The translations under genes and the position numbers were made by a program. Below, piece by piece: positions 3,733 to 50,398 of a DNA stretch of 53,038 nucleotides. The stretch is taken from NCBI GenBank assembly GCA_947601495.1, contig CANQGE010000010.1, positions 1 to 53,038 of the forward strand, read 5' to 3'. The notes beneath the pieces are model-generated. The model saw only the letters and a program-made list of their open reading frames with translations. It was not told the DNA's origin and ran no database searches. How positions within the stretch are numbered: the stretch's first letter is position 1; every line of letters starts with the position of its first letter. The DNA is from an uncultured Clostridia bacterium. Lineage in GTDB: Bacteria > Bacillota > Clostridia > TANB77 > CAG-508.

Positions 3733-3900
3733 TATTTTACTGTTATGCTTATATATTGTTTTATTTCATGACTTGGCGAAAGCAATCTTCTTTTTTAAAA
3801 ATAATCAAAATGAAGATTGCTCCAATCGCCCTCCGCTTACGCTTCGGTTGGTCGCTTACGCGTCATTCATAAAACAATATATAATCATAGCAGTAAAATA
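3733..3900. repeat. Structured palindromic repeat element, copy 1 (~168 bp)
   Basis: The left arm (3733-3772) and right arm (3862-3900) are inverted repeats pairing at about 35 of 39 positions. Between them lies a GC-rich core. The core contains a perfect 10-bp stem, AGCAATCTTC (3781-3790) with GAAGATTGCT (3812-3821), and then CGCTTACGCTTCGGTTGG followed by TCGCTTACGCG. The same core recurs at 41191-41280, but with arms of different sequence that pair with each other. The element lies between the spo0A terminator and the deoD promoter, so it is outside both transcription units. It could be a MITE/REP-like mobile repeat, a DNA cruciform site or a structured RNA. Confidence 0.85.
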
Positions 3901-4035
3901 CTGTACAAATTATAGATTATAATTTATAATTCGTAAATCACAACTTACAATTCACAGCCTATAATTTATAAGTCATAAATTACTGCTTACAACTCACAGT
4001 TTATAATTTACAAGTTACAACTTCTTATAAAATTA
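3901..4035. repeat. Degenerate ~40-bp direct repeats
   Basis: Two adjacent imperfect units begin CTTACAATTCACAG and CTTACAACTCACAG, each followed by a TATAATTTATAA-like stretch and about 40 bp apart. A weaker third unit precedes them. No ORF is present. The stretch lies directly beside structured repeat copy 1. Confidence 0.5.
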
Positions 4036-4089: not shown

Positions 4090-4905
4090 TTATGCTGTTT
4101 TTAAATCTAAACGTAGCTTATCTGCTATCATTGCTATAAATTCTGAATTTGTTGGCTTGCCTTTATTAGAATTTACAGTATATCCAAATATGCTTTCAAC
4201 AGTTTCTATTTGTCCTCTATTCCATGCCACTTCTATAGCATGTCTAATTGCACGTTCAACTCTTGAAGGTGTTGTTTTATATTTCTTAGCTAAATCTGGA
4301 TAAAGTTGTTTAGTTATTTGATTAATAACTTCAATATTATTTACTACCATCATTATTCCATCTCTTAAATATTGATATCCTTTTATATGTGCTGGAACTC
4401 CGATTTCATGAATGATGTTTGTAACTTTTATTTCTAAAATTTCTTCTTTTGTAGCTTGATTATTAATATTTATATAATTTGGTTTTATATCTTTTATAAC
4501 TACTGGTTTGTTTAATTGTTTAGGTTGTGGAACATTAACTAACTCTCTTATTCTTTTCATTAAAACATCCATCTTAAAAGGTTTTAGAATATAATATTGT
4601 GCTCCTAAATTTATAGCTTGTGTTGTAACTGTGTCTTGTCCAACAGCTGATAACATAATGCAAATAGGCAATTCAACATTTGAAGATATTAGCTTTTCTA
4701 AAACTCCCAATCCATCTAAATGTGGCATAATAACATCTAATAATACCACTTGTGGTCTTTCCATTATTATTTTATTATAGGCCTCTTGCCCATCTTTAGC
4801 TGTTGCAACTATTTCTACATCTTCTTGTGTATTAAAATATGTAATTAATGTAGAAACAAATTCTAAATTGTCATCTGCTATAAGAATTTTGATTTTTTCG
4901 TTCAA
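4090..4905 (-). CDS. spo0A: Stage 0 sporulation response regulator Spo0A
   Basis: Master regulator of sporulation entry; its phosphorylated dimer binds 0A boxes (TGTCGAA). Residues 1-125 form a receiver domain: ILIADDN (acidic pocket), phospho-acceptor Asp in [13 protein letters not shown], then the conserved Lys in ILKPF. The C-terminal Spo0A-type DNA-binding domain is very typical: [16 protein letters not shown], the recognition region [21 protein letters not shown], and [13 protein letters not shown]-like residues near the end. At 271 aa it is full length. The start codon is TTG, set by an excellent AAGGAGGG site six bases upstream; no ATG is available. A perfect 0A box lies at 5028-5034, suggesting autoregulation. 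The usual neighbour spoIVB is not beside it. Its presence implies an endospore-forming lineage. Confidence 0.97.
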
Positions 4906-41151: not shown

Positions 41152-41317
41152 TAATTCTTATGATACTTATATATAGCTTTATTGCGTGCCTTGGCGCCTA
41201 AAATCTTCTTTTTTTTAAATAAACAAAAGGAAGATTGCTCCAATCGCCCTTCGCTTACGCTTCGGTTGATCGCTTACGCGGCACTTCTAAAGCTATATAT
41301 AAATATCATAAGAATTA
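41152..41317. repeat. Structured palindromic repeat element, copy 2 (~166 bp)
   Basis: The left arm (41152-41190) and right arm (41280-41317) pair at about 33 of 38 positions. The core (41191-41279) matches copy 1 almost base for base, with AATCTTC/GAAGATT, CCAATCGCCCT, CGCTTACGCTTCGGTTG and TCGCTTACGCG. The arms differ from copy 1 but stay complementary; for example TTGT/ACAA in copy 1 is TAGC/GCTA here, and GAC/GTC is GCC/GGC. It lies between the AIM24-family gene's terminator and the gatC promoter, in the same orientation to its neighbours as copy 1. Confidence 0.85.
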
Positions 41318-48870: not shown

Positions 48871-48921
48871 GATTTAAAATTTTATTTGAAAACATTAAAT
48901 TTATTTTTTAAGTAAAACAAA

Positions 48922-48947
48922 AACGCGTAATCAATAGATTACGCGTT
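48922..48947. terminator. Bidirectional terminator between the HD-GYP gene and proS
   Basis: AACGCGTAATC and GATTACGCGTT form an 11-bp GC-containing stem with a 4-nt loop, with A runs on the left and T runs on the right, so it serves both convergent genes. Confidence 0.85.
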
Positions 48948-48961
48948 TTAATTTTGATTTA

Positions 48962-50398
48962 TTAATATTGTCTTCCCCAAACTACCATCTTTTCTGCTTT
49001 TTTTCCACAAATTGGGCAAACATCTGCTAAATGTTCTTGTTTAAATGGTATGCATCTAGAGTGTGCTCCTGTAACTTCTTTAATTTTATCTTCGCACTCT
49101 ACATTTCCACACCACATTGTTTTAACATAACCTTGATTTTTCTCTAAGTTTTGGGTTATTTCTTCTAAAGAAAATGCTACTGTTGTTTTTTCAGAAACTA
49201 TTTTTTTACAAGCTTCAAACATATTGTTTTGAATATTTTCTAAAACCTCTCCTAGTTTTTCTTTTAAATTGTTTAATTCTACAGTTTCTTTTTCTCCTGT
49301 GTCACGTCTTACTAAAACTGCAACACCATTTTCTAAATCTCTTGGTCCTATTTCTATTCTAACTGGAACACCTCTCATTTCCCAATCATTAAATTTAAAT
49401 CCAGTTGAATAATTATCTCTATCGTCTAATTTTACTCTAAAATCATTTTTCAATTCTTCAAAAATTTTATTTGTTTTCTCTAAAACGCCTTCTTTATGCA
49501 TAGCAATTGGAACTATAACTGCTTGAATTGGAGCAACTCTTGGTGGTAATTTAAGTCCTCTATTATCTCCATGAGCCATTATAACAGCTCCTAATAATCT
49601 TGTACTTAATCCCCAAGATGTTTGATATGCATATTCTTCTTTTCCTTCTCTATTTTGAAATTTAATTTCAAATGGCTTTGTAAAATTTTGTCCAAAGTAA
49701 TGTGAAGTTCCTGCTTGAAGAGCTCTTCCATCATGCATTAATGTTTCTACTGTATATGTAGCTTCTGCTCCAGCAAATTGTTCTTTTGGAGTTTTTCTTC
49801 CTTTTAAAACAGGTATAGCTAAAAGATTTTCTATGACGTCTGCATAAATATCTAGCATCATCATAGTTCTTTCTTCTGCTTCTTTTGCTGTTTCATGTAT
49901 TGTATGTCCTTCTTGCCATAAAAATTCTCTTGAACGTAAAAATGGTCTTGTTTCTTTTTCCCATCTTACAACACTACACCATTGATTTCCCAAAATTGGT
50001 AAATCTCTCCAAGATTTAATCCATCTAGAATACATTGTTGACATCATAGTTTCTGAAGTTGGTCTTATGCATAATCTTTCTTCTAGTTTCTCTCCACCTC
50101 CAAATGTAACCCAAGCTACTTCTGGAGCAAATCCTTCAACATGATCTTTTTCTTTTTGTAGCATACTTTCTGGAATAAGAAGTGGCATATAAAGATTTGT
50201 TACACCTACTTCTTTAAATTTTTTATCTGTATAATTTTGTATATTTTCCCATATTGCATATCCATAAGGTCTTATTGCTATAAAACCCTTTGTATCTGTA
50301 TAATCTGCAAGTTCTGCTTTTCTTACAACATCTGTGTACCACTGAGCAAAATCTTCTTCAATATTTGTAATTTCTTTAACAAATTCTTCTTTTCCCAT
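48962..50398 (-). CDS. proS: Prolyl-tRNA synthetase, archaeal/eukaryotic type
   Basis: Charges tRNA-Pro. Class II synthetase with motif 2 VVRWEKETRPFLRSREFLWQEGHT and TSWGLSTRLLGAVIMAHGDNRGL (motif 3), split as indicated. There is no bacterial-type INS editing insertion, and the C-terminal domain has zinc-type cysteines (MWCGNVECEDK, CPICGKK) and ends in GRQY, where the terminal Tyr is characteristic of the archaeal/type-3 ProRS. 478 aa. GGAGG precedes the ATG. It lies 26 nt behind scpB and probably forms an operon. This type is scattered in Firmicutes and may need a separate editing protein. Confidence 0.95.
   Translation of the reverse strand: MGKEEFVKEITNIEEDFAQWYTDVVRKAELADYTDTKGFIAIRPYGYAIWENIQNYTDKKFKEVGVTNLYMPLLIPESMLQKEKDHVEGFAPEVAWVTFGGGEKLEERLCIRPTSETMMSTMYSRWIKSWRDLPILGNQWCSVVRWEKETRPFLRSREFLWQEGHTIHETAKEAEERTMMMLDIYADVIENLLAIPVLKGRKTPKEQFAGAEATYTVETLMHDGRALQAGTSHYFGQNFTKPFEIKFQNREGKEEYAYQTSWGLSTRLLGAVIMAHGDNRGLKLPPRVAPIQAVIVPIAMHKEGVLEKTNKIFEELKNDFRVKLDDRDNYSTGFKFNDWEMRGVPVRIEIGPRDLENGVAVLVRRDTGEKETVELNNLKEKLGEVLENIQNNMFEACKKIVSEKTTVAFSLEEITQNLEKNQGYVKTMWCGNVECEDKIKEVTGAHSRCIPFKQEHLADVCPICGKKAEKMVVWGRQY

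What the first reader, a model, noticed from the sequence alone, without database searches (positions are those of the whole stretch)
3733..3900. Structured repeat copy 1: conserved GC-rich core inside long covarying arms
Seen: 39-40-bp arms pair with each other (about 35 of 39) around a GC-rich core in an otherwise very AT-rich region. The core is almost identical to 41191-41279, but the arms differ between the two copies while staying complementary within each. In the part of the arm that can be aligned, TTGT/ACAA became TAGC/GCTA and GAC/GTC became GCC/GGC; the outer ~12 bp are unrelated in sequence yet still pair. Inference: selection or a copying mechanism keeps the fold, not the letters. 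Explanations are a mobile palindromic repeat (REP/MITE-like, perhaps moved by a transposase elsewhere), an element that inserts into or copies existing palindromes, or a structured RNA or cruciform with a function. Both copies lie between a terminator and a promoter, outside known transcripts.
Basis: partly seen in the sequence, partly recalled or inferred. Interest (0 to 1): 0.85.

Follow-up and report, generated by a model that had tools for sequence, protein, structure and literature searches.

The report
Flipping palindromic repeats with unique arms
A gut bacterium's genome carries dozens of copies of a short DNA element whose conserved middle part flips in place between two mirror-image arms, and the arms change their letters but stay matched to each other, most likely because DNA copying uses one arm as the template for the other.

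Summary
A covariance model finds 64 copies in the own genome (G000), 63 in G016, 27 in G019, 4 in G011, 1 in G009 and none in the other 33 of 38 genomes. Plan in 116 measured copies: core (mostly 82-93 nt), 5-bp inner stem, 4-nt loose internal loop, about 27 bp of nearly perfect arm ending near position 36. Arms mostly differ between copies but pair within each. New: the core inverts in place. Of 43 orthologous G000/G016 pairs (tandem many-to-one pairs left out), 25 have the same orientation and 18 are flipped, with arms and flanks unmoved. Arms co-evolve in place. Mismatches show no G-U preference, so pairing is kept at DNA level. Six empty alleles hold no palindrome. Best reading: a MITE-like dispersed palindrome whose arms are homogenised and whose spacer is inverted by template switching or recombination between arms, a mechanism described for yeast genes and rRNA hairpins. 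The mobilising enzyme, the core's function and the persistent internal loop are unexplained.

The parts
3737..3897 (+). Copy 1, whole element (arms plus core)
   Evidence: orthologous copy in G016 (C3:3864) in the same orientation
3737..3763 (+). Copy 1 left outer arm (positions 36-10)
   Evidence: arm geometry from 116 copies
3764..3767 (+). Copy 1 internal loop, left side (positions 9-6)
   Evidence: 53-77% paired in 116 copies
3768..3772 (+). Copy 1 inner 5-bp stem, left side
   Evidence: 99-100% paired in 116 copies
3773..3861 (+). Copy 1 conserved core
   Evidence: alignment A1, 30 invariant columns in 80 copies
3862..3866 (+). Copy 1 inner 5-bp stem, right side
3867..3870 (+). Copy 1 internal loop, right side
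3871..3897 (+). Copy 1 right outer arm (positions 10-36)
41155..41315 (+). Copy 2, whole element; the core is flipped at the orthologous site of G016 (C3:39334-)
41155..41190 (+). Copy 2 left arm
41191..41279 (+). Copy 2 conserved core
41280..41315 (+). Copy 2 right arm

Best explanation
The element is a MITE-like dispersed palindromic repeat of about 160 bp: a conserved core between two arms of about 36 bp. Once in place, its arms act as local inverted repeats. During replication or repair one arm serves as template for the other (template switching or recombination between inverted repeats). This does two things: it makes the arms complementary again when a mutation has separated them, so the fold is kept while the letters drift; and when the exchange runs through both arms it turns the spacer (core, inner 5-bp stem, internal loop) round in place. 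New copies arise rarely and carry their arms with them; copies are also lost by deletion. Shown: copy number, in-place inversion, paired arm evolution, lack of RNA wobble preference, two losses and two probable gains. Inferred: that template switching (and not selection or a dedicated enzyme) is the cause, and how copies spread.
For: In-place inversion: 18 of 43 G000/G016 orthologous pairs flipped, 25 not (95% interval 0.28-0.60 for 18 of the 41 with measured arms); against G019, 11 of 18 comparisons flipped. The loop asymmetry travels with the core in flipped pairs (11 move, 1 stays, 6 ties) and stays in unflipped ones (18 stay, 1 moves, 4 ties), so the exchange lies outward of position 9. 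Arms co-evolve in place: in 12 of the 18 G019 comparisons (8 G019 loci, some counted with both G000 and G016), 14 paired two-sided changes against 0.6 expected if independent; 7 of the 14 are in the seven G000 comparisons. Between G000 and G016 outer-stem paired changes number 10 in 18 flipped pairs (5 of them one block) and 2 in 23 unflipped pairs. Matched multi-base changes in both arms: a 5-bp block at C17:15529, and a 2-nt/3-nt loss at C8:52278, both in flipped pairs. Mismatches do not favour wobble: G.T 38, A.C 51 of 4590 pairs; relative to transcription at tandem-gene sites G.U 19, A.C 20. Arms (10-36) diverge 2.8% in unflipped and 6.2% in flipped pairs against 10.0% and 12.5% at positions 37-60; PMC8604942 (passages) states that inverted repeats in proteobacterial non-coding DNA are more conserved than their surroundings and that template switching between arms homogenises them and inverts the spacer.
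Against: Simple hairpin template switching should also repair the internal loop, yet positions 6-9 are unpaired in 23-47% of 116 copies, in every core-length class, though 26 of 116 have no loop mismatch; the inner 5-bp stem inside the flipping block is 99-100% paired. One-sided outer-stem changes outnumber paired ones between G000 and G016 (52 against 12), and one-sided indels in the outer arm (6 pairs, my count) outnumber matched ones (1 pair). Flipping and paired changes are not significantly linked by locus (6 of 18 against 2 of 23, p 0.11). The core too is conserved in place (right part 2.2%, left part 4.5%), which arm copying does not explain. The spacer or loop inversions in the papers are 2-5 bp and 4-8 nt, far shorter than the roughly 106 bp here.
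Confidence: 0.55

Rival explanations
1. Selection on DNA structure: the folded hairpin or cruciform is bound by a host protein at most sites (chromosome organisation, gyrase or recombinase site), so mismatches are purged or compensated; inversion is a neutral by-product of the long arms.
For: Same geometry (5 bp, 4-nt loop, about 27 bp) in all core-length classes of 116 copies; arms and core evolve more slowly than flanks; 0 of 116 measured copies lie inside an ORF of 80 aa or more; one-sided arm changes outnumber paired ones.
Against: Requires selection at tens of loci per genome; G016 lost two copies; a 5-bp block and an indel changed in both arms are hard to reach by two independent mutations; the family was not found in 20 of 25 same-genus genomes.
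Confidence: 0.22
2. A dedicated inversion and transposition system: a recombinase recognises the core or the internal loop and exchanges strands within arms of any sequence, so flipping is programmed.
For: Orientation is close to evenly split between sister genomes; inner stem and loop form a constant border of the flipping block; probable gains in single lineages.
Against: No candidate singled out: tyrosine recombinase domains occur in 27 of 27 genomes searched, and Y1 transposase has no match in G000, G016 or G011. But linkage was not tested systematically and serine recombinases and other transposase families were not searched. By my own arithmetic about one flip per 0.1 substitutions per site suffices, so no fast enzyme is needed.
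Confidence: 0.15
3. A structured RNA or RNA-level signal (terminator, RNase III site, regulatory RNA) whose stem is kept by compensatory mutation.
For: Strong predicted RNA fold; covariation.
Against: No wobble preference on the transcribed strand (19 G.U against 20 A.C), 25 of 107 copies between divergent genes and 12 between convergent ones; inversion of the core; no Rfam match on the element at gathering score and only two chance microRNA matches at E 1.2 and 2.2 around copy 1.
Confidence: 0.05
4. The core inserts into pre-existing palindromes, or duplicates the target flank as an inverted repeat.
For: Arms are unique to most copies.
Against: None of the six empty alleles aligned has a palindrome or arm at the site (read by eye); two of these sites look like gains; one new copy (C1:24183) carries the arms of a copy 29 kb away.
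Confidence: 0.02

Closest known systems
Template switching between inverted-repeat arms (arm homogenisation and spacer inversion), PMC8604942 (passages read)
   Same: Arms made identical, spacer inverted in place, inverted repeats more conserved than surroundings.
   Different: There: single inverted repeats in yeast genes with spacers of 2-5 bp. Here: a multi-copy repeat family with a spacer of about 106 bp, flipped at 18 of 43 shared sites.
Template-switch origin of compensatory changes in RNA hairpins, PMC8794818 (passages read)
   Same: Compensatory pairs and whole-loop inversions attributed to one event.
   Different: There the hairpins are functional RNAs with short loops and loop inversion is rare; here it is common and RNA function is not supported.
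Hairpin-associated minute inversions of chloroplast DNA (search listing only; detail recalled)
   Same: Stem stays, loop turns round between relatives (recalled).
   Different: Not a dispersed family (recalled).
Stem-loop repeat families of bacteria such as ERIC, RUP and Correia/NEMIS (PMC2267715 passages read; family details partly recalled)
   Same: Short, mostly intergenic, non-coding, many copies, predicted stem-loop.
   Different: As recalled, those families keep arm sequence between copies; here arms are unique to most copies and the core flips.
Invertible switches of Clostridia (PMC5903667 passages read)
   Same: Short intergenic segment between inverted repeats, inverted in place; the inverted repeats differ between most sites of one genome.
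   Different: Here the inverted segment is what the copies share, copies number tens per genome, and no recombinase has been tied to them.

Membership tests
MITE (miniature inverted-repeat transposable element) | Short, non-coding, many copies, inverted-repeat ends | tested here: met
   64 copies in G000, about 160 bp, paired ends
MITE (miniature inverted-repeat transposable element) | Terminal inverted repeats alike between copies | tested here: not met
   Left arms of two random copies are 44% identical on the median; swapped arms do not pair. So called MITE-like, not a MITE
MITE (miniature inverted-repeat transposable element) | Transposase-bearing parent element | not tested
   Only PF01797 and PF00589 were counted in relatives; no search for a larger element with this core and a gene
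MITE (miniature inverted-repeat transposable element) | Fixed-length target-site duplication | tested here: inconclusive
   By eye, four of six indels end in direct repeats of 7-11 bp at varying distance from the arms, more like deletion or microhomology
REP/BIME moved by RAYT (Y1) transposase | Y1_Tnp gene in the genome | tested here: not met
   0 matches in G000, G016 and G011, 2 in G009; G000 is only 72.7% complete; G019 was not among the 27 genomes searched
Inverton (site-specific recombinase switch) | In-place inversion between flanking inverted repeats | tested here: met
   18 of 43 orthologous pairs flipped
Inverton (site-specific recombinase switch) | Both orientations within one population, and a recombinase that makes them | not testable with these tools
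   No reads; PF00589 is in 27 of 27 genomes and was not tied to the element
Template-switched inverted repeat | Coordinated changes appearing in both arms | tested here: met
   14 paired changes against 0.6 expected; one matched block and one matched indel
Template-switched inverted repeat | Whole arm, internal mismatches included, repaired | tested here: not met
   Internal loop at positions 6-9 has a mismatch in 90 of 116 copies
Structured RNA (cis-regulatory or sRNA) | Wobble-tolerant covariation on the transcribed strand | tested here: not met
   19 G.U against 20 A.C at tandem-gene sites

The most novel reading that the evidence does not exclude
A homology-directed inversion and dispersal system: a host or element factor recognises the conserved core or the constant inner stem and loop and exchanges strands within arms of any sequence, so that each copy carries its own private recombination site and flips as one of tens of switches across the genome.
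Probability: 0.15. Interest if true: 0.88.

Novelty: new variant of a known kind. Interest (0 to 1): 0.62.

Why it matters
It is a natural replicate experiment: 27 to 64 loci per genome in three related species, each with its own arms and a core that can be read forward or reversed. It would allow the rates of arm homogenisation, spacer inversion and loss to be measured in a bacterium, and it warns that strong covariation (here far beyond shuffles) can arise without RNA selection.

Tried and rejected
Insertion into existing palindromes and inverted duplication of the target flank: rejected from empty alleles and probable gains. RNA selection as main cause: rejected from the wobble test and context. 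REP/RAYT: not supported. Rfam: nothing on the element at gathering score; two chance microRNA matches. Phage records, plasmid records and viral contigs: no match. My first ortholog comparison ignored orientation and gave false flank divergences of 24-30%; that anomaly led to the inversion, and the figures were redone. A first arm measurement with lax penalties overran the arm ends and was replaced.

Limits and dropped rows. The six filled/empty sites were picked by eye, not exhaustively; 11 of the 126 listed copies had no flank hit there. Two sites stayed unpolarised: C18:20488 (absent in G016 and G019, whose spacers differ) and C3:28204 (a three-copy array at that place in G019). The G016 list used 62 of 63 matches (one was not printed); arms were measured in 116 of 126 listed copies; 41 of 54 orthologous pairs entered the divergence counts (several-to-one tandem pairs and unmeasured copies left out). 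The 116 copies count most orthologous sites twice. In one search, 6 of 18 G019 comparisons were left out after I had seen them: two at L070 (contig end cuts the left arm), and one at L100, two at L102 and one at L076 (arms not alignable by eye). Those at L100, L102 and L076 speak for site reuse or arm replacement and were not counted.

Full report
What is there. The two window copies (cores 3773-3861 and 41191-41279) are members of a large family. A covariance model built from 80 copies gave 64 matches in G000, 63 in G016, 27 in G019, 4 in G011 and 1 in G009, and none in the other 33 of 38 genomes (own genome included; 25 of the 38 are of the same genus). An exact core pattern over one genome per GTDB species hit 50 stretches, all in contigs of two assemblies of uncultured Clostridia with isolate names beginning 'Lapin' (the tool may leave out the window's own genome); equal contig lengths show that these are G016 and G019. 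Phage, plasmid and viral collections gave no match.

Architecture. Measured from the core outward in 116 copies: positions 1-5 pair in 99-100%, positions 6-9 in 53-77%, positions 10-24 in 93-100%, positions 25-27 in 85-90%, positions 28-34 in 95-99%; pairing then falls to 80% at 36, 53% at 37 and 20% at 41. The same plan holds in four core-length classes from 61 to 106 nt. Two G011 copies show it by eye (L114, L119). Own arms score a median of 29, arms swapped between copies 3; left arms of two random copies are 44% identical on the median. The covariation count lies far above both controls of the tool.

The core flips. G000 and G016 are syntenic around most copies, mostly at 92-99% identity. 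When orthologous copies are oriented by their flanks, 27 pairs have the same and 27 the opposite orientation; leaving out pairs in which several G000 copies map to one G016 copy, 25 same and 18 flipped. Window copy 1 is unflipped, window copy 2 flipped. Against G019, 11 of 18 comparisons are flipped. An assembly error is unlikely (inference): arm and flank are unique, both ends of the core agree, and the loop asymmetry moves with the core in 11 of 12 informative flipped pairs and stays in 18 of 19 informative unflipped pairs. Standing mismatches agree: in flipped pairs 2 move, 0 stay, 1 other; in unflipped pairs 6 stay, 1 moves, 1 other. One moved mismatch is at position 25, so the exchange there lay further out.

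Arms co-evolve at DNA level. In 12 of 18 comparisons with G019, paired two-sided changes number 14 where 0.6 are expected from independent change; 20 changes are one-sided (8 G019 loci, several counted against both G000 and G016; the seven G000 comparisons alone give 7 paired changes). Between G000 and G016 there are 12 paired and 52 one-sided outer-stem changes, as expected if mismatches arise and are later resolved. Matched multi-base changes occur at C17:15529 (5-bp block) and C8:52278 (loss of 2 and 3 nt); six other pairs have indels in one outer arm only. Mismatches do not favour G.U over A.C by core orientation (38 against 51) or by transcription (19 against 20); wobble pairs are 7 of the 1439 cells of the 80-copy alignment, A.C cells 14 (counted). 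Of 107 copies with a gene called on both sides (my own ORF calling), 70 lie between tandem, 25 between divergent and 12 between convergent genes; 0 of 116 lie inside an ORF of 80 aa or more.

Gain and loss. Six sites filled in one of G000/G016 and empty in the other were aligned; no empty allele contains a palindrome. Two (C7:50890, C1:114879) are filled in G019, so G016 lost them. Two look like gains: C1:24183 is absent in G016, G019, G007 and G021 and has the arms of C1:53578, 29 kb away; C4:123136 of G016 is absent in G000 and G019. The other two are unclear. By eye, four of the six indels end in direct repeats of 7-11 bp, mostly A-rich, at varying distance from the arms, which looks like deletion or microhomology joining and not a fixed target duplication.

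Mechanism. PMC8604942 (passages) states that template switching between inverted-repeat arms homogenises the arms and can invert the spacer, and reports earlier work that short inverted repeats in proteobacterial non-coding DNA are more conserved than their surroundings. Here arms diverge 2.8% (unflipped) and 6.2% (flipped) against 10.0% and 12.5% just outside. PMC8794818 (passages) proposes the same process for RNA hairpins, with loop inversion rare. So each part of the behaviour has a described mechanism; I did not see the combination in a high-copy bacterial repeat in the listings of my paper searches, which cover only open-licence papers.

What does not fit. The internal loop should be repaired by simple hairpin copying and in 90 of 116 copies is not; the inner 5-bp stem lies inside the flipping block and is still almost perfectly paired, with paired variation between copies. 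The core itself is conserved in place. Elements at three orthologous places of G019 (L100, L102, L076) have arms that I could not align with those of G000/G016, which means site reuse or arm replacement. A structure-recognising enzyme or selection on the folded DNA would explain some of this, so both remain as rivals.

Verdict. Observation confirmed; interpretation partly right and extended by the inversion. New variant of a known kind.

Noticed in passing
window 3914-4015: A/T-rich minisatellite (42-bp unit, 2.3 copies; also read as 21-bp) between copy 1 and the Spo0A-like gene.
   Followed up: no
G000 C9:28509-28850, C9:36536-36755, C7:4545-4773; G019 C13:50417-50872, C4:134384-134918: Tandem arrays of two or three copies; the G000 ones whose core length is visible have short cores of 61-62 nt.
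   Followed up: partly
G019 L102:151-278, L076 near 6582, L100 near 2849: Element present at the orthologous place but with arms that I could not align to those of G000/G016: site reuse or wholesale arm replacement.
   Followed up: partly
G000 C14:10155-10703 and G016 C4:65441-65989: A 343-aa tyrosine recombinase gene lies about 3.3 kb from a copy of the element in both genomes (C14:6721, C4:62123); genes of similar length occur in relatives without the element. Linkage not tested.
   Followed up: no
window 4090-4905 (-): Spo0A homologue with receiver and C-terminal domains: this small-genome relative of the Clostridia keeps the sporulation regulator.
   Followed up: no
window 48902-48967: 31-bp inverted repeat, 77% complementary, with GATTACGCG at the centre, between the 3' ends of two converging ORFs: possibly a terminator.
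   Followed up: no
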